The position numbers were made by a program, and so were the translations under genes. The notes under the pieces were generated by a model. It saw nothing but the letters and a program-made list of their open reading frames with translations. It ran no database searches and was not told where the DNA came from. 45,642 nt of DNA from Acidilobaceae archaeon (GTDB lineage Archaea; Thermoproteota; Thermoprotei_A; Sulfolobales; Acidilobaceae): positions 1-45,642 of the forward strand of contig JALSOR010000041.1 in NCBI GenBank assembly GCA_026986415.1, written 5' to 3'. Every line of letters begins with the position of its first letter. Positions within the stretch are counted from its first letter, which is position 1. This document shows, piece after piece, positions 36,534 through 44,004 of this stretch.

Positions 36534-36767
36534 ATGATGCCTCCTATAAGGTGTTTTACGTGTGGCGCCCCGCTCGGCCACCTCTGGGAGGAGTTTAAGG
36601 CGAGAGTGGAAGCCGGTGAACCCCCAGGCAAGGTCCTGGACGACCTGGGTGTTAAGAGGTACTGCTGTCGCAGGATGCTCCTAACCTCCATAACCTATGT
36701 GGAGGAGGTGGCTAAATACTATACTCTAAAGGCTAGAAGACTTAGGGAGGTGGGTGGTCTGGCATGA
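36534..36767 (+). CDS. rpoN: DNA-directed RNA polymerase subunit N
   Basis: Small zinc-binding RNA polymerase subunit (Rpb10 family), 77 residues. The zinc-bundle motif CFTCG with the unusual paired YCCRRM at the other end is conserved, and [12 protein letters not shown] is typical. Overlaps rps2 by four bases. RpoK and enolase, often found next in other archaea, are not here. Confidence 0.97.
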
Positions 36768-37384
36768 GCACTCAAACAAAAGAACTACTCGTCCCAGCGG
36801 AACTCTACCGTAAAGCCGGAGTAGTATTTGGAACCCAGATCTGTACCAAGTATATGAGACAGTTTACCTATAAGATCCTACCGGACGGATTCTACCTGCT
36901 GGACGTTTCAAAAATAGATGAGAGGCTGAGGATCGCCGCCAACTTCCTCTCCAAGTTCGACCCGCAGAAAATAGCGGTAGTATCGGTCAGACTGTACGGC
37001 CAGAAGCCTGCCCGGATGATGTGCGAGAGGGTGGGATGCAAGGCCATAACAGGCAGGGTCGTCCCAGGCATATTCACTAACCCGTACCTGGAATACTATA
37101 TGGAGCCGGATGTGGTCCTAGTCACCGACCCGCGTACAGACAAGCAGGCTATAATCGAGGCAAGCAAGGTCGGCATACCTGTTGTCGCGTTCGCCGACAC
37201 CGACAATAAGATAGAGAACATAGACCTCGTTATACCAGCCAATAACAAGGGGCGTAGAAGCCTAGCACTGCTATACTGGATACTGACCCGCGAGATACTG
37301 AGGAACCAGGGACGCCTGGGACCCGGAGAGTCTCTAGACGTGGAGTATGAAGCGTTCATGGCCGGCAAGATAAGAAGATTCTAA
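36764..37384 (+). CDS. rps2: 30S ribosomal protein S2
   Basis: S2 family, 206 residues. [40 protein letters not shown] and [20 protein letters not shown] are characteristic of archaeal S2. The ATG overlaps the rpoN stop. A T-rich stretch follows at 37385-37415 (TATTTTTACT, CTATTTTCTTG), which may end the ribosomal transcript and start the MEMO one. Confidence 0.97.
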
Positions 37385-37415
37385 CACTATTTTTACTAGT
37401 AAGACTATTTTCTTG
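37385..37415 (+). terminator. T-rich stretch after rps2
   Basis: TATTTTTACT and CTATTTTCTTG follow the S2 stop immediately. The T-runs fit an archaeal terminator, and the same stretch could contain promoter elements for the MEMO gene. Confidence 0.35.
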
Positions 37416-37478
37416 AAATACCAATATCCCGGATATATCCCCTCTCATAGCACTAATCATACTCCTGGTGAGAAAAAC

Positions 37479-38348
37479 ATGGCTGCAACAGTAAGGTACC
37501 CCGCCCATGCGGGTACCTTTTATCCCAGAGAGAAAGAGGAGCTCATAAAACTCATAGAGTGGTCGTTCGAGCACCCTCTAGGGCCGGGAAGCCTACCCGA
37601 CCCTACTAGCCGGGTCCCCGAGAGGCTCCATCACGGGTTTGTTGTGCCCCACGCAGGATACATATATAGCGGGCCCGTCGCGGCGCATGCATACTACAAG
37701 CTGGCACACGAGAAGCCCCCGGACGCAGTCGTAATAGCAGGGCCAAACCATAACGGAGTAGGCCTGCCGGCGGCAGTGTTCAAGGGTAAAGCCTGGCTTA
37801 CACCGCTAGGCGAGGTAGAGGTTAACATGGAAGTTGCTAGAATGATAGTATCTAACACTCGTTATTTCGGTTTCGATAATGACGCACACTACTATGAGCA
37901 CAGTGTTGAGGTACAGGTTCCATTCCTACAATATATTTACGGGGACGAGCTAAGCATCGTCCCAATAGTCATAGAGTACCAGTCCCTAGACGTTGCTAGA
38001 GATCTTGCCAAGGCGCTCGCCAAGATCGCTATTGAAAATGGGGTTGACATAGTCTTTCTCGCCAGTAGCGATTTCAACCACTACGAGCCGCACAATATTA
38101 CGGTCGAAAAGGACATGAAGGCAATACAGGCAATACTCGAAATGGACGAGGAGAAACTGTACAGGGTTTTAGAAGAGTATAACATAACAATGTGCGGCCC
38201 ATGCCCGGTAGCCTCGCTAATAGTATACTCTAAACTCGTGGGCTCAGATAAACCTGTGCTCCTAAAGCATGCGACAAGCGGTGATATAACAGGAGAGAAA
38301 GACTGGGTCGTAGGCTATGCCTCCATAGCATTCCCAGTCAAACGGTAG
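37479..38348 (+). CDS. MEMO family protein (AmmeMemoRadiSam system B type)
   Basis: A homologue of human MEMO1, 289 residues from ATG 37479. RYPAHAGTFYP, HGFVVPHAGYIYSGPVAAHA, GPNHNGVG, YYEHSVEVQVPFLQY, ASSDFNHYEP and GPCPVASLIVYSK are conserved; the histidines form a metal site like extradiol dioxygenases. Function in archaea is unsettled. It lies between rps2 and the isoprenoid genes as in many archaea. A TTG at 37413 gives a longer frame, but GGTGAG precedes the chosen ATG. Confidence 0.92.
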   Translation: MAATVRYPAHAGTFYPREKEELIKLIEWSFEHPLGPGSLPDPTSRVPERLHHGFVVPHAGYIYSGPVAAHAYYKLAHEKPPDAVVIAGPNHNGVGLPAAVFKGKAWLTPLGEVEVNMEVARMIVSNTRYFGFDNDAHYYEHSVEVQVPFLQYIYGDELSIVPIVIEYQSLDVARDLAKALAKIAIENGVDIVFLASSDFNHYEPHNITVEKDMKAIQAILEMDEEKLYRVLEEYNITMCGPCPVASLIVYSKLVGSDKPVLLKHATSGDITGEKDWVVGYASIAFPVKR

Positions 38349-38390: not shown

Positions 38391-39212
38391 TTGGCGGGGA
38401 ATAGAAGAAAGTACAAGGTCCACGTGCCAGTAATACTGTTAGGAGTCCCCCTCTCTAGAGTCGAGAACGGATATCTGGCCGCCCCTACAACGGCCAGGCT
38501 GGAAATGGTCTTCGAGCAGGCAAGCAAGGGAGGGATAATCCTAGATTGGAACGGGCCCCCAACATACAGTGACAGTATGAGGTATGCCAGGCTTTTCCTG
38601 TCAAAGCTCGTGGAAGAGTTAGAGTTGGACAGCGGTATCTATGCTAGAATAGCCCTAGACAACCCGGACGCTCTCAACCTTCCGGAGGCAGGGATCTACG
38701 CGTCGCTCACAGGAATACTACTATACGCTATAGCCCGGGAGTATGGCGAGACGCCCGGAGTAGACGATATTATTGAGATGTCTAGGATGTTAGACCAGCT
38801 GGAATACGTGGCGGGCTGGGAGAGGGTGATGGATGCATTAAGGTATTCCGCCTTGCTAGGCGCCATAACAGTATACAGGAACGATGAGGAACACGGAGAA
38901 ATCAGGAGGGGTACCGTTAAAGTTACAAGGAAAATTGTGGTGGAATCGCACGGTCAAAGGCTGGACGAAAAGCTTCTAGGCCCCGACGTTTATGGGGCTG
39001 TAGCCCACCTGGTAGGGACTATTGTGCTGGAGGCTGCTGTCAGGATAAGAGAGCTCGAGAACCCTGATGGGGAGAGAATATACCGGGCCTTGGAACCCTT
39101 ATTACAAGTATCCTCCCCGATACTCTCATCTTTCTGGGGGGTCAGGGCAGAGGGGCTTATAGTGTCCCCCGGCTTTCCGAGGAGGTTCGAGATAGTGAGT
39201 ATTACAAGGTGA
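38391..39212 (+). CDS. Degenerate GHMP-kinase-like protein in the mevalonate kinase slot
   Basis: A 273-residue protein that I align by eye with GHMP kinases. YKVHVPVILLGVPLSRVENG and YLAAPTTARL match the mevalonate kinase start (K...aPgkvilfGEHavVyG.pAia). ALNLPEAGIYASLTGILLYA matches motif 2 but lacks the Gly/Ser-rich nucleotide loop (PvgaGLGSSAA). LEYVAGWERVMDALRYSALL resembles the helix with the catalytic aspartate. The C-terminal Gly-rich motif 3 is gone (SFWGVRAEGLIVSPG). Next come IPK, IPP isomerase and GGPP synthase. It is therefore likely a pseudokinase or a highly divergent enzyme. TTG start; no better start nearby. Function unknown. Confidence 0.6.
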   Translation: MAGNRRKYKVHVPVILLGVPLSRVENGYLAAPTTARLEMVFEQASKGGIILDWNGPPTYSDSMRYARLFLSKLVEELELDSGIYARIALDNPDALNLPEAGIYASLTGILLYAIAREYGETPGVDDIIEMSRMLDQLEYVAGWERVMDALRYSALLGAITVYRNDEEHGEIRRGTVKVTRKIVVESHGQRLDEKLLGPDVYGAVAHLVGTIVLEAAVRIRELENPDGERIYRALEPLLQVSSPILSSFWGVRAEGLIVSPGFPRRFEIVSITR

Positions 39213-39223
39213 GGTATTAGGGG

Positions 39224-40009
39224 ATGAGCGGCGTGTCGGAGTGTGGATCCGCCGTTATAAAGTTGGGGGGCAGTGTTATAACCGATAAGACAAAGAAGTA
39301 TACTATTAACACTCACAATCTCGACAGGATCGTTGGGACCATTAAAGAGTATGTTACAAGAGGGGGCAGGCTTGCACTAGTGCACGGGGGCGGCAGCTAT
39401 GGGCATTTCGAGGTTAAAGCTATCGAGGACGCTAAGGGCGTCCTCGAACCTGTCGATGCTCCTAGAGTGCAACTCTCCATGCTTAGGCTGGCAGTACAAG
39501 TGCTAGACAAGCTTGTTAGCAACGGCATTCCCGCGGTGCTACATCCTCCCCACACCCTGTGTCATGATGGTAGAGTGGAGAACTGTAAGCTTGGCGTAAT
39601 AGTTAAGGATTACGATATGCACCTGGTCCCTGTGACATACGGAGATGCGATTCCCGTCGAGGACGGGGTCAAAATTGTTAGCGGAGACGATCTAGCAGCC
39701 GCCCTAGCATCTATACTATCGACCGACTGTCTAGTATACGTGATCGACAAGCCTGGAATAATAGGTGAAAAAGGGGACGTTATTCCAGTCGTAACAAGCA
39801 TAGGCAACCTGAAAATCGTTCAGGAGACAGGGGACGTTGATGTTACTGGCGGTATAACGCATAAGCTTACTGTAGCCTTAGATCTCGCGAGAACATACCG
39901 TGGGAACGTGATCATTACTAATATTGACGGGCTCCAGAGGCTTCTAAACACGGGCACTATTGAGGGTGTGGGGAGCCTGGTGAAGCCCGAGGATAACGAG
40001 GAGACTTGA
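39224..40009 (+). CDS. ipk: Isopentenyl phosphate kinase
   Basis: Amino-acid-kinase-fold enzyme that phosphorylates isopentenyl phosphate to IPP in the archaeal mevalonate pathway. IKLGGSVITDKTKKYT near residues 12-27 binds phosphate, HGGGSYGH (54-61) holds the key histidine that separates this family from relatives, and DVTGGITHKL is near the nucleotide site. 261 residues. Twelve bases after the GHMP-like gene and one base before the isomerase gene. Confidence 0.93.
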   Translation: MSGVSECGSAVIKLGGSVITDKTKKYTINTHNLDRIVGTIKEYVTRGGRLALVHGGGSYGHFEVKAIEDAKGVLEPVDAPRVQLSMLRLAVQVLDKLVSNGIPAVLHPPHTLCHDGRVENCKLGVIVKDYDMHLVPVTYGDAIPVEDGVKIVSGDDLAAALASILSTDCLVYVIDKPGIIGEKGDVIPVVTSIGNLKIVQETGDVDVTGGITHKLTVALDLARTYRGNVIITNIDGLQRLLNTGTIEGVGSLVKPEDNEET

Positions 40010-40010
40010 A

Positions 40011-41150
40011 GTGTCGGGGAACCCAGAGGTAACGAAGAACAGGAAGCTGGACCACATAAAACTAACGGTCAGTAGAAACGTAGAGGCTAGAGAGTCTACT
40101 CTGCTCGAATACGTGAGAATAGTGCATAACCCCCTGCCCGAAGTAGACCTCGACAATGTCGACCTTACAGTGGAGTTCTGCGGTAAAAAGCTACGTGCCC
40201 CGTTAATGATAACAGCAATGACGGGAGGCCACGAGGAGGCTTACAGGATTAACAGAGAGCTAGCGAGAATAGCTGAGAAGTACGGGCTCGCGATAGGTGT
40301 TGGGAGCCAGAGGGCGGGGCTTGAAGATCCCAGTGTTGTGCACACCTTCAGGGTTGTGAGGTCGGAAGCCCCGCACGCATTCGTAGTGGCGAACCTTGGA
40401 GCACCCCAGCTCTCTAAAGGCTATGGTGTGAGGGAGGCCAGAGCGGCTGTAGAGATGGTTGGGGCTGACGCTCTAGCCATACACTTGAACGCTGGTCAGG
40501 AGGCATACCAGTACGAGGGGGACCCGTACTATTCCGGGGTCTTGACCAAGATACTAGAGATACAAGAGGAGCTTGACGTGCCGGTACTCATAAAGGAGAC
40601 AGGCTCAGGGCTCAGCCGAGAGGCAGTACGCCTACTCTATAGGCTGGGAGTAAAATGCTTCGACACTGCCGGGCTAGGCGGTACTAGCTGGATAAAAGTT
40701 GAGGCTCTAAGAGCCCCGAGCAGGGACTCCTACAATCCTCCAGGCCCCCTAGCAGACTATTGGGGTAACCCGACCGCGGTCGCCGTCGCCGAGACTAGAT
40801 ATGCAGCGCCGGACGCTTACATTGTGGGTAGTGGCGGCGTTAGAACAGGGCTTGACGCGTCGAAAGTAATAGCTCTGGGCGCGGATATAGCGGGGATGGC
40901 GTTACCGTTCCTTAGAGCTCTAGTAAGAGGGGGTGTTCAGGGGCTCGACAGGTTCGCTGCAACAACAATATACCAGCTAAAAACTGTAATATTTATGGTT
41001 GGAGGGAGAAGCCCTAGAGACCTCTGGAGGGCCCGCATATCTGTTTGGGGCAGGCTTTACGAGGAGCTTAGATCGGCCGGAATAGACCAGAGCGAATATT
41101 TAACTAGAACACGGCTGTTACCATTGGTGCTGCGTTATGGCAGATTTTAG
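40011..41150 (+). CDS. fni: Isopentenyl-diphosphate delta-isomerase, type 2 (FMN)
   Basis: FMN- and NADPH-dependent IPP isomerase giving DMAPP. KNRKLDHIKL at the N-terminus, APLMITAMTGGHEEAYRINR, GVGSQRAGLEDPSV, AIHLNAGQEAYQYEGDP and DTAGLGGTSWIKVE are family signatures around the flavin. 379 residues. GTG start. Its 3' end overlaps the GGPP synthase gene by 14 bases. Confidence 0.94.
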   Translation: MSGNPEVTKNRKLDHIKLTVSRNVEARESTLLEYVRIVHNPLPEVDLDNVDLTVEFCGKKLRAPLMITAMTGGHEEAYRINRELARIAEKYGLAIGVGSQRAGLEDPSVVHTFRVVRSEAPHAFVVANLGAPQLSKGYGVREARAAVEMVGADALAIHLNAGQEAYQYEGDPYYSGVLTKILEIQEELDVPVLIKETGSGLSREAVRLLYRLGVKCFDTAGLGGTSWIKVEALRAPSRDSYNPPGPLADYWGNPTAVAVAETRYAAPDAYIVGSGGVRTGLDASKVIALGADIAGMALPFLRALVRGGVQGLDRFAATTIYQLKTVIFMVGGRSPRDLWRARISVWGRLYEELRSAGIDQSEYLTRTRLLPLVLRYGRF

Positions 41151-42165
41151 TCGGCTCCTATCGCTGGCATCAACCTATGCTGCAAGGGTCGACTGGTTCG
41201 TCTATTCTAAGTTCGAGAACGGCGCCCCCGAGGAGCTATACAGGGCCGCCTTCCACCTGTATAGGGCGGGGGGTAAACGGTTCAGGCCGTTTGTAGTTAT
41301 GGCAACAGCCAGAATGCTTGGGGGGCCTCAGTCGGAAAGCGACGCTCTACCCTTCGCGGCGGCCGTTGAGCTATTCCATACCTACACCCTAATACATGAT
41401 GACATTATGGACGACGACGACTACAGGAGAGGGGTCCCCACGACCCATAGGATCTGGGGGGTCCCCTACGCCATACTTGCAGGGGACTTGGACTATGCTC
41501 TCTCGTTCAAGTCCATAATTTCCGCTGGATCAGGCTCTGAAGCTTTCGATAGGACATGTATTCTAGACGCGGTCGAAACAATGGTTGAAGCCTCTATACG
41601 CGTGGCTGAAGGCCAGGGCTATGATATGCTCTTCGAGAGAAGGATCGACGTCGACTATCACGACTATCTCTCAATGATATACCGGAAAACAGGAGCCCTT
41701 ATAGAGGCTTCCGCCAAACTAGGCGCGATAGCCGCATGCCAGACAAACTTGAAAGAAACGATGGGCGAGTATGGACGTCTAGTAGGCATAGCATTCCAGA
41801 TAAGAGATGATATCCTGGGAGTGTTTGGGGACCCCTCAAAGACGGGAAAGCCCATATACAACGACCTGAGGAGAGGAAAGAAAACACTCCTAGTGTTATA
41901 CGCGTACAAGCACGCGGCAGGCGAGGACAAGAAAATTATAGAGAGCGTGCTACGCGGCGAGGCCCGCGATGAGGAGACCTTGAGGCGCGCGGCAGAAATA
42001 ATCCGTGAAACGGGCGCCCTGGAATATGCGGAAAACCTTGCGAGAAGAATGGCTGACACGGCAATAAAAATACTTGATGATATTGGGGAGGACGTTATCG
42101 AGGACGAGGATGCTAAAGAGGCGCTAGTCGAGCTGGCGAGATTCACAGTCGAAAGAGAAAAATAG
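41137..42165 (+). CDS. idsA: Geranylgeranyl diphosphate synthase (E-isoprenyl)
   Basis: Trans-prenyltransferase building C20 chains for archaeal lipids. GGKRFRP (residues 45-51) binds pyrophosphate, the first aspartate motif is DDIMD (88-92) and the second is RDDILGVFGD. Tyr83, five residues before the first motif, is in the chain-length position and fits C20 rather than longer products. 342 residues. ATG inside the end of fni. Confidence 0.93.
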   Translation: MADFSRLLSLASTYAARVDWFVYSKFENGAPEELYRAAFHLYRAGGKRFRPFVVMATARMLGGPQSESDALPFAAAVELFHTYTLIHDDIMDDDDYRRGVPTTHRIWGVPYAILAGDLDYALSFKSIISAGSGSEAFDRTCILDAVETMVEASIRVAEGQGYDMLFERRIDVDYHDYLSMIYRKTGALIEASAKLGAIAACQTNLKETMGEYGRLVGIAFQIRDDILGVFGDPSKTGKPIYNDLRRGKKTLLVLYAYKHAAGEDKKIIESVLRGEARDEETLRRAAEIIRETGALEYAENLARRMADTAIKILDDIGEDVIEDEDAKEALVELARFTVEREK

Positions 42166-42177: not shown

Positions 42178-42273
42178 CAGTTCTATTAGAGAATTAGAAC
42201 TGTGCTTCCCCACTATTTTAAGGAACACACGAAACTATGCAACTACCAGGCCCATAAAGGGGAGGGTAGAGCA

Positions 42274-44004
42274 GTGGAACTAGAAAAACTGGTCTATGCT
42301 TACGCTCTCAAGAACGCGGTAAAACATGGGGGCAAAGCTAAGCCCGGAAGCGTTATCTCGATGATACTAGCCGACCGGCCGGATCTCAAGCCTAACGCTA
42401 GAGAGATAGCCAGAATAGCGAGAAAAGTTGTGGAGGAAGTTAACAGGCTAAGCCCGGAAGAGCAGAAGAGAATATTGGAAGAGGAATACCCCTGGCTGCT
42501 AGAGGAGCCCCGAAAAGAGGAGGCACAAGAGAAGGGCAGACTCCCCCCGCTCCCTAAAGCGGAAAAAGGACGCGTTGTCACCAGGTTCGCTCCAAACCCC
42601 GACTTCGTAATCCACATAGGGAATGCCAGGCCTGCAATTCTTAGCGATGAGTACGCGAAAATGTATAACGGGAAAATGGTTCTCCGTTTCGAGGACACGG
42701 ACCCTAGAACTAAGAGGCCTATGATAGAGGCGTATGATCTCATCAAGCAGGACCTGAAATGGCTTGGAGTTGTATGGCATGAAGAGCATATTCAAAGTAA
42801 AAGGCTCGAGATCTATTATGGGATTGCCAGGACGCTCATCGAGAAGGGATGCGCCTATGTTGACACGTGCGGCGAGAAGAGCCGCGAGCTCCTGAGAGCG
42901 GGAAGGTACTGTGAGACTAGGGACTACCCGCCCGAGTGGCACCTAGAACAGTTCGAGAAAATGCTGAACGGCGAGTATGCCGAGGGACAAGCAGTGCTCC
43001 GGGTGAAAACGGATCCTAACCATCCGAACCCTAGTGTTAGAGACTGGGTTGCTATAAGAATAATCGACCCCTACAAGTACCCGCACCCTATAGTAGGGAG
43101 TAAGTACTGGGCATGGCCCACGTACAACCTAGCGGTTAGCATAGACGACCACCTCCTCGGGATAACCCACGTGCTGAGAGGAAAAGAGCATCAGGTCAAC
43201 ACCGAAAAACAACTCTACGTCTACAAGTGCATGGGCTGGGAGCCACCAGTTTTCATACACTTCGGCAGGCTAAAACTGGAAGGCTTCATAATGAGTAAAA
43301 GCTACATACGTAAGCTGATAGAGGAGAACCCTGGCAAGTTCCTCGGCTACGACGACCCCCGGTTCGGCACTATTGCCGGTTTGAGGAGGCGAGGCATTAC
43401 CCCGGAGGCCATAAGGGAAGTCATACTCGAGGTTGGAGTAAAGCCTGGAGACGCAAAGCTCAGCTGGGCGAACCTTGCAAGCGTGAACAGGAAGATACTC
43501 GACAGTAGAGCGGACAGGATAATGTTCGTGAGAGAGGGCTCCGTCAGGGCGGTGATAGACACTAAAGGGTCCTGCATAGACGCCATGATACCCTACCATC
43601 CCGAGAGGCCGAGGAAGAGGACTATACGGGTCTGCCACGGCGATACCGTGCTTGTCGAGCGCAAAGACCTGGAGGCTGGCGAAGTCAGGTTAATAGGGCT
43701 GGGCAACTTCAGGGTGGAGCTTAAGGACCGCTCAACGGCCCGCCTAGAACTACTGGAGGATTCAAGCCTAGAATACGCTAGGAGGAACAAGTTAAGGCTC
43801 GTGCACTGGGTTCCCGATAAAGGAAAGATCCCGGTAGAGGTTCTCATACCGGAAGGGCTAGAGCTTATAGTAGAGAGGGGCTATGCTGAGCCTGCAATTT
43901 CCGAGTATGGGGTTGATAGTATCCTCCAGTTCATGAGATACGGTTTCATTAGAATAGATAATATTACAGATGGAAAATATACTGTAATATTTAGCCATAA
44001 ATAG
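42274..44004 (+). CDS. gltX: Glutamyl-tRNA synthetase (archaeal type)
   Basis: Class I synthetase charging tRNA-Glu, 576 residues from GTG 42274. RFAPNPDFVIHIGNARPAI contains the HIGH-like motif as HIGN, a crenarchaeal variant, and FIMSKSYIRKL the KMSKS-like motif. VLRFEDTDPRTKRP and the C-terminal beta-barrel region (Gln-type anticodon-binding fold) match archaeal GluRS. GGGGAGGG lies 8-16 bases before GTG 42274; GTG at 42202 would extend it by 24 residues. Follows idsA as in methanogens. Confidence 0.94.
   Translation: MELEKLVYAYALKNAVKHGGKAKPGSVISMILADRPDLKPNAREIARIARKVVEEVNRLSPEEQKRILEEEYPWLLEEPRKEEAQEKGRLPPLPKAEKGRVVTRFAPNPDFVIHIGNARPAILSDEYAKMYNGKMVLRFEDTDPRTKRPMIEAYDLIKQDLKWLGVVWHEEHIQSKRLEIYYGIARTLIEKGCAYVDTCGEKSRELLRAGRYCETRDYPPEWHLEQFEKMLNGEYAEGQAVLRVKTDPNHPNPSVRDWVAIRIIDPYKYPHPIVGSKYWAWPTYNLAVSIDDHLLGITHVLRGKEHQVNTEKQLYVYKCMGWEPPVFIHFGRLKLEGFIMSKSYIRKLIEENPGKFLGYDDPRFGTIAGLRRRGITPEAIREVILEVGVKPGDAKLSWANLASVNRKILDSRADRIMFVREGSVRAVIDTKGSCIDAMIPYHPERPRKRTIRVCHGDTVLVERKDLEAGEVRLIGLGNFRVELKDRSTARLELLEDSSLEYARRNKLRLVHWVPDKGKIPVEVLIPEGLELIVERGYAEPAISEYGVDSILQFMRYGFIRIDNITDGKYTVIFSHK

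What the first reader, a model, noticed from the sequence alone, without database searches (positions are those of the whole stretch)
38391..39212. Motif-less GHMP-like protein in the mevalonate kinase position of an isoprenoid operon
The order S2-MEMO-X-IPK-IPP isomerase-GGPP synthase-GluRS matches methanogens, where X is mevalonate kinase. Here X keeps the GHMP outline but lacks the GEH, GLGSS and C-terminal Gly-rich motifs. It could be a pseudokinase regulating or scaffolding the pathway, a new kinase, or a lineage-specific replacement. This is my strongest candidate for an undescribed function.
Basis: partly seen in the sequence, partly recalled or inferred. Interest (0 to 1): 0.72.

Follow-up and report, generated by a model that had tools for sequence, protein, structure and literature searches.

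The report
Dead mevalonate kinase kept in operon
In many heat-loving archaea, the operon slot that should encode mevalonate kinase, a key membrane-lipid enzyme, holds a relative of that enzyme that has lost its ATP-binding parts yet is carefully preserved, while the working kinase lies elsewhere in the genome; it probably has a second, non-catalytic job that nobody has described.

Summary
The 273-aa gene at 38391-39212 matches no Pfam or NCBIfam family, but it is a degenerate mevalonate kinase (MVK). Evidence: profile-profile match to MVK over 260 columns (E 4e-14); structure models (one at pLDDT 90) whose best PDB matches are MVK and its sister GHMP enzymes; and a canonical MVK in the same S2-MEMO-[slot]-IPK-IDI2 position in 18 surveyed genomes. 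The ATP-binding motifs are gone: the catalytic Lys and His are replaced, the phosphate-loop Ser is a conserved Tyr, and the last Gly-rich motif is missing. The genome has one ordinary MVK elsewhere. The pattern is general: 39 surveyed genomes in 14 families carry a degenerate slot gene, and 38 of them have exactly one canonical MVK elsewhere (the exception is 59% complete). dN/dS is about 0.05-0.2, so this is not decay. The slot gene survives in Sulfolobaceae that lost IPK, so it is not just an IPK partner. Best reading: a non-catalytic MVK homologue whose old active site was reshaped to bind a ligand or partner and regulate isoprenoid synthesis. MVK descent is near certain; the regulatory role is inference (about 50%). 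No description of such a protein was found.

The parts
38391..39212 (+). X: degenerate mevalonate-kinase homologue (273 aa, TTG start)
   Evidence: ORF; full-length profile match to MVK E 3.9e-14; Foldseek to MVK
38427..38450 (+). former motif 1 (MVK PGKVILFGEH) now PVILLGVP: Lys, Glu and His replaced
   Evidence: column table: MVK K9, E15, H16 (100% in 52 MVKs) are P13, V19, P20 here; P20 is 100% in X
38682..38702 (+). former ATP phosphate loop (GAGLGSSA) now PEAGIYA; Y103 replaces the Ser
   Evidence: MVK S109 100% versus X Tyr 96%
38793..38795 (+). D135, invariant in X, at the position of the invariant acidic Glu of MVK (Mg ligand by established knowledge)
   Evidence: A1 invariant columns
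38832..38843 (+). D148 (catalytic Asp position, kept in 76% of X) and R151 (invariant in X)
38874..38888 (+). Y162-R163-xx-E166: R163 invariant in X and in all f16/f40 degenerate proteins, E166 92-100%; on the MVK strand whose Tyr/Arg bind the mevalonate carboxylate in L. major MVK
36764..37384 (+). ribosomal protein S2, upstream end of the conserved cluster
37413..38348 (+). MEMO / AmmeMemoRadiSam protein B family, gene before the slot
   Evidence: PF01875 2.5e-80, TIGR04336 2.1e-92
39224..40009 (+). isopentenyl phosphate kinase, gene after the slot
   Evidence: NF040647 2.4e-41, over its cut-off
40011..41150 (+). type 2 IPP isomerase
   Evidence: TIGR02151 7.3e-113
41137..42165 (+). GGPP / short-chain prenyl diphosphate synthase
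   Evidence: PF00348 3.9e-72
42202..44004 (+). glutamyl-tRNA synthetase, conserved downstream end
   Evidence: used as tblastn query; found downstream in most clusters

Best explanation
X descends from the mevalonate kinase that occupied the S2-MEMO-MVK-IPK-IDI2 slot and has lost kinase activity (shown by sequence, model and synteny; about 0.93). Another MVK gene elsewhere does the catalysis (inferred from its intact motifs). X was kept under purifying selection for a non-catalytic role. Most likely its former active-site cleft, with the ATP side closed and a new invariant set N26/Y103/D135/R151/R163/E166 on the substrate side, binds an isoprenoid-pathway metabolite or a partner enzyme, and thereby regulates flux, as the ATP-less GHMP enzyme MBD is thought to reuse its ATP pocket for GGPP. 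The ligand or partner and the direction of regulation are inferred, not shown.
For: MVK ancestry: X profile against MVK profile E 3.9e-14 over 260 columns, against 1.1e-5 for homoserine kinase and nothing for IPK or GGPPS; the X profile hits canonical MVKs in register (1.8e-9, 3.3e-7, 1.7e-6) and only MVK in the PDB (2x7i, 0.0045); Foldseek. Intermediates: slot proteins of family f16 are hit by the MVK model TIGR00549 itself (5.9e-6 to 1.5e-4) and by X (3e-13). Same slot: canonical MVK in 18 genomes of 14 families. Kinase loss. One canonical MVK per genome: in the slot when the slot is canonical (18/18), elsewhere when the slot is degenerate (38/39). Selection: dN/dS about 0.05-0.2 in eight close pairs, near that of the flanking operon genes. 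Tight operon: median X-IPK gap -8 nt. Repurposed site: X-specific invariants lie at or next to former active-site positions. Precedent: MBD lost ATP binding and is activated by GGPP.
Against: No direct evidence of binding or regulation. Families f9, f6, f35 and f36 live without a slot gene in the cluster, so the role is dispensable. X evolves fast (25-40% identity within the family), odd for a conserved ligand site. D148 and D135 are still acids, so some catalysis cannot be excluded. R163 aligns with Arg168 of L. major MVK, next to, not at, the carboxylate-binding Arg169.
Confidence: 0.5

Rival explanations
1. X is an enzyme with a new, ATP-independent activity (for example a lyase, isomerase or phosphatase on a mevalonate-like acid) that uses D135, D148, R151 and R163.
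For: Invariant polar residues sit at the former active site; MBD shows that a GHMP protein can lose ATP and keep chemistry.
Against: The catalytic Asp position is not invariant (76%; Ser in the L017/L018 genomes). The pathway in the own genome already has MVK, AcnX and IPK, so no step is obviously missing. X is present both with the archaeal and with the AcnX-less pathway.
Confidence: 0.2
2. X is a purely structural partner, for example a dead half of a heteromeric MVK or an assembly scaffold for MEMO, IPK or IDI2, without a ligand.
For: MVKs are homodimers (PMC6283576); the slot gene is tightly coupled to its neighbours; the slot protein was retained after kinase loss in separate lineages with different remaining motifs.
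Against: X persists without IPK in four Sulfolobaceae, without MEMO next to it in f3 and G069, and with two different MVK clades, so no single fixed partner fits. Conservation clusters at the cleft.
Confidence: 0.2
3. X is still a kinase with an unusual nucleotide site.
For: D148 and D135 remain acidic in the window protein.
Against: Catalytic Lys, His, the whole phosphate loop and the third Gly-rich motif are gone across the family; a canonical MVK is present.
Confidence: 0.05
4. X is a decaying relic without function.
For: Fast divergence; absent in some families.
Against: Full-length in 39 genomes of 14 families; dN/dS about 0.05-0.2.
Confidence: 0.03

Closest known systems
Archaeal mevalonate kinase (GHMP superfamily, TIGR00549), slot type S2-MEMO-MVK-IPK-IDI2
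   Same: Fold, full-length profile similarity, gene position and flanking genes
   Different: No catalytic Lys, His, phosphate loop or third Gly-rich motif; truncated C-terminus; no match to TIGR00549; a separate canonical MVK exists
Mevalonate 3,5-bisphosphate decarboxylase (MBD) of Picrophilus/Thermoplasma
   Same: GHMP protein of the mevalonate pathway that lost ATP use; its pocket seems to have been reused (GGPP activates it; PMC9254496)
   Different: MBD is a decarboxylase-lineage enzyme that keeps catalysis; X is MVK-lineage and also lost the Lys and His
Pseudokinases of the protein-kinase superfamily
   Same: Kinase-derived fold without catalysis kept under selection (analogy only)
   Different: Unrelated fold; X belongs to the small-molecule GHMP kinases

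Membership tests
GHMP kinase superfamily | two-domain GHMP fold | tested here: met
   AF2 pTM 0.72 (window X) and 0.91 (relative); leading Foldseek hits are GHMP enzymes with probability 1.00
GHMP kinase superfamily | motif 2 phosphate loop P-x-G-x-G-L-G-S-S-A | tested here: not met
   PEAGIYA in the window; Ser replaced by Tyr in 96%
GHMP kinase superfamily | motif 3 C-terminal Gly-rich loop | tested here: not met
   absent; the protein ends there
GHMP kinase superfamily | Pfam PF00288 / PF08544 match | tested here: not met
   no Pfam match at E 10
Mevalonate kinase | catalytic Lys and substrate-selecting His of APGK...GEH | tested here: not met
   P13 and P20; role of the residues from PMC6283576
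Mevalonate kinase | catalytic Asp | tested here: inconclusive
   D148 in the window, 76% in the family, alignment-dependent
Mevalonate kinase | TIGR00549 score over cut-off | tested here: not met
   no NCBIfam match for X
Mevalonate kinase | ATP-dependent phosphorylation of mevalonate | not testable with these tools
   needs an assay
Homologue (descendant) of mevalonate kinase | significant profile similarity plus conserved synteny | tested here: met
   E 3.9e-14 over 260 columns; same slot as canonical MVK
Pseudoenzyme | conserved gene under purifying selection that lacks catalytic residues | tested here: met

The most novel reading that the evidence does not exclude
Slot mevalonate kinase had, before its loss of catalysis, a second non-catalytic function in archaeal isoprenoid control. 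When another MVK took over the reaction, the slot protein lost catalysis independently in at least two or three archaeal lineages but was kept as a dedicated metabolite sensor or pathway regulator: a new class of GHMP pseudoenzyme.
Probability: 0.3. Interest if true: 0.82.

Novelty: new variant of a known kind. Interest (0 to 1): 0.62.

Why it matters
Archaeal membranes are made of isoprenoids, yet how archaea control isoprenoid flux is poorly known. Tested MVKs from methanogens and Nitrosopumilus, the methanogen ones encoded in this operon, are insensitive to feedback, and the authors ask what other mechanism regulates the pathway (PMC5817203). A conserved catalytically dead MVK in that operon is a concrete, testable candidate. 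It also offers a rare natural series (intact, half-degenerate, fully degenerate) of an enzyme turning into a pseudoenzyme at one locus, and it warns against annotating the slot gene as MVK by position.

Tried and rejected
A single-protein scan of genome contigs found nothing and a broad alignment had no stretch conserved enough to search with; the closer Pyrodictiaceae alignment gave 8 named loci. Considered and rejected: X as IPK partner only (kept where IPK is lost); X as pseudogene; X as the genome's MVK (canonical MVK on contig C124); a second MVK in the genome (the C80 fragment is 99% identical to the end of C124 and is a contig overlap); X as homoserine kinase relative (weaker). Whether degeneration happened once or several times was not settled: the protein tree joins all degenerate rows (long branches), whereas the neighbour-gene tree and the differing leftover motifs favour two or three events. 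Literature searches for a dead or pseudo-MVK found none; the library lacks most subscription journals. Structure jobs used only the window and the search for related loci sequences, as the tool requires.

Full report
Observation. The ORF at 38391-39212 (+, TTG start, 273 aa) is real and sits between MEMO and isopentenyl phosphate kinase in a run of co-directional genes S11-RpoD-L18e-L13-S9-S2-MEMO-X-IPK-IDI2-GGPPS-GluRS. X alone has no match in Pfam, NCBIfam or, as a single sequence, a meaningful one in the PDB.

What X is. A profile of 25 relatives (A1) aligned to a profile of 52 canonical MVKs gives E 3.9e-14 over 260 columns, i.e. full length; homoserine kinase gives 1.1e-5 over 122 columns, and IPK and GGPPS give nothing. 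The same X profile hits canonical MVKs of other genomes in register (1.8e-9, 3.3e-7, 1.7e-6), and its only hit in the PDB is S. aureus MVK (0.0045). The AlphaFold model of X (pLDDT 67, pTM 0.72) has S. aureus MVK as best PDB match (2.2e-8). A relative (Pyrodictium delaneyi record, L064) models at pLDDT 90.4 and pTM 0.91, and its best matches are phosphomevalonate kinase, L. major MVK, S. aureus MVK and mevalonate decarboxylases (3.4e-9 and up). TM-scores are moderate (0.5-0.64), so X is a diverged MVK-like GHMP protein.

What it lacks. In one alignment of X, half-degenerate slot proteins and 52 MVKs, residues that are 100% in MVK have changed: Lys9 to Pro13, Glu15 to Val19, His16 to Pro20 (100% in X) and phosphate-loop Ser109 to Tyr103 (96%). 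The Gly residues of the phosphate loop are gone, and the last Gly-rich motif is missing because X ends there. Glu141 of MVK corresponds to Asp135 (100% in X) and catalytic Asp152 to Asp148 (76% in X). X has its own invariants N26, D135, R151, R163, with E166 at 92%. R163 follows the aromatic residue that aligns with Tyr167 of L. major MVK, which together with Arg169 on the same strand holds the mevalonate carboxylate (PMC6283576). Inference: the nucleotide side of the cleft is closed and the acceptor side is rebuilt.

Where the working MVK is. The window's genome (92.5% complete) carries one canonical MVK on another contig (TIGR00549 4.9e-72), plus homoserine kinase, a beta-RFAP-synthase-like protein and a pantoate-kinase-like protein. 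A second MVK-like fragment on C80 is the same gene across overlapping contig ends. The genome also has AcnX (PF04412 2.1e-105), so the archaeal phosphomevalonate dehydratase route ending in IPK is expected.

Generality. I surveyed the slot in genomes across the phylum. Canonical MVK fills the slot in 18 genomes of 14 families. A degenerate protein fills it in 39 genomes of 14 families: nine families of the window's order, two more families of its class, and f16, f40 and f43 elsewhere in the phylum. In others (f9, f35, f36, f42, f22) the cluster reads S2-MEMO-IDI2 with both the slot gene and IPK gone from it. Every genome tested has exactly one canonical MVK over the TIGR00549 cut-off: in the slot for 18 of 18 canonical-slot genomes, elsewhere for 38 of 39 degenerate-slot genomes (the exception G320 is 59% complete). 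The off-slot MVKs fall into two groups, one supported at SH-aLRT 100 (f2, f6, f8, f10-f13, f16, f38, f40), the other among slot-type MVKs (f1, f4, f9, f35). Named loci put family f7 in Pyrodictiaceae; assembly sizes suggest that G027 is Aeropyrum pernix and G212 Thermofilum pendens, and that f11 is Sulfolobaceae (from memory, not tested).

Selection. Nei-Gojobori dN/dS in eight close pairs is about 0.05-0.2; in the three pairs where operon neighbours were also measured, the slot gene is similar to or a little above IPK, MEMO and IDI2. The slot gene overlaps or abuts IPK (median gap -8 nt, n=34; start codons were taken as the first possible, so overlaps are upper bounds). This is not decay.

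Clues to function. X is retained in four presumed Sulfolobaceae genomes (G078, G373, G032, G392) whose best IPK-model hit is only 38-44 bits against a cut-off of 120. The three of these that were tested lack AcnX, as do the other f11 genomes tested, consistent with the eukaryote-type pathway reported for Sulfolobales (PMC11052028). So X is not merely an IPK subunit. It is also retained where MEMO is not adjacent (f3, G069).

One or several degenerations. The f16/f40 proteins lost the phosphate loop, the invariant Glu and the catalytic Asp but keep the C-terminal Lys (and f16 the Glu of GEH), whereas X keeps acids at the Glu and catalytic positions and lost the others. A tree of the neighbour genes needs at least three label changes for 'degenerate' on strongly supported branches, which suggests parallel degeneration; the protein tree joins all degenerate rows, but on long branches. 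Unresolved.

Mechanism. Shown: MVK ancestry, destroyed ATP site, separate MVK, conservation, selection, synteny. Inferred: X acts without kinase chemistry. The most likely mode is that the rebuilt cleft binds a pathway metabolite or a partner and tunes flux. Two published facts make this attractive. MBD, another GHMP protein of the pathway, lost ATP use and is activated by GGPP, and its authors propose that the ATP pocket was recycled for that ligand (PMC9254496). And the tested MVKs of methanogens (encoded in this operon) and Nitrosopumilus are not inhibited by downstream isoprenoids, leaving the control mechanism open, while the stand-alone M. jannaschii MVK is feedback-sensitive (PMC5817203).

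Verdict. A genuine, so far undescribed family of MVK-derived pseudoenzymes: a new variant of a known kind (pseudoenzymes, GHMP fold), not a new fold or system. The mechanism remains to be tested.

Noticed in passing
G078, G373, G032, G392 (family f11); L086, L087, L149: Isopentenyl phosphate kinase seems to be lost in some Sulfolobaceae (best hits 38-44 bits against a cut-off of 120), while the degenerate MVK stays between MEMO and IDI2 or next to MEMO.
   Followed up: partly
L142-L144, L178-L181, L197 (families f9, f35, f36): The cluster is collapsed to S2-MEMO-IDI2: the MVK-slot gene and IPK are both missing from it, and IPK lies elsewhere in the genome.
   Followed up: partly
L116, L118-L123, L126, L128-L130, L133, L141, L184: Off-slot MVKs of many degenerate-slot lineages form one strongly supported clade across distant families, suggesting an old paralogue or transfer that took over the reaction.
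   Followed up: partly
L100-L102, L109, L152-L156, L194 (family f16): Half-degenerate MVKs in the slot: several are still recognised by the MVK model, GE of GEH and C-terminal Lys kept, phosphate loop and catalytic Asp lost.
   Followed up: yes
L003 (G000 contig C135): The window's genome carries a beta-ribofuranosylaminobenzene 5'-phosphate synthase-like gene (methanopterin-type pathway), below the curated cut-off of its NCBIfam models.
   Followed up: no
L200 1-203 and L201 end (contigs C80 and C124): The two contigs overlap by about 200 bases at 99% identity inside the MVK gene; they are probably adjacent in the genome.
   Followed up: yes
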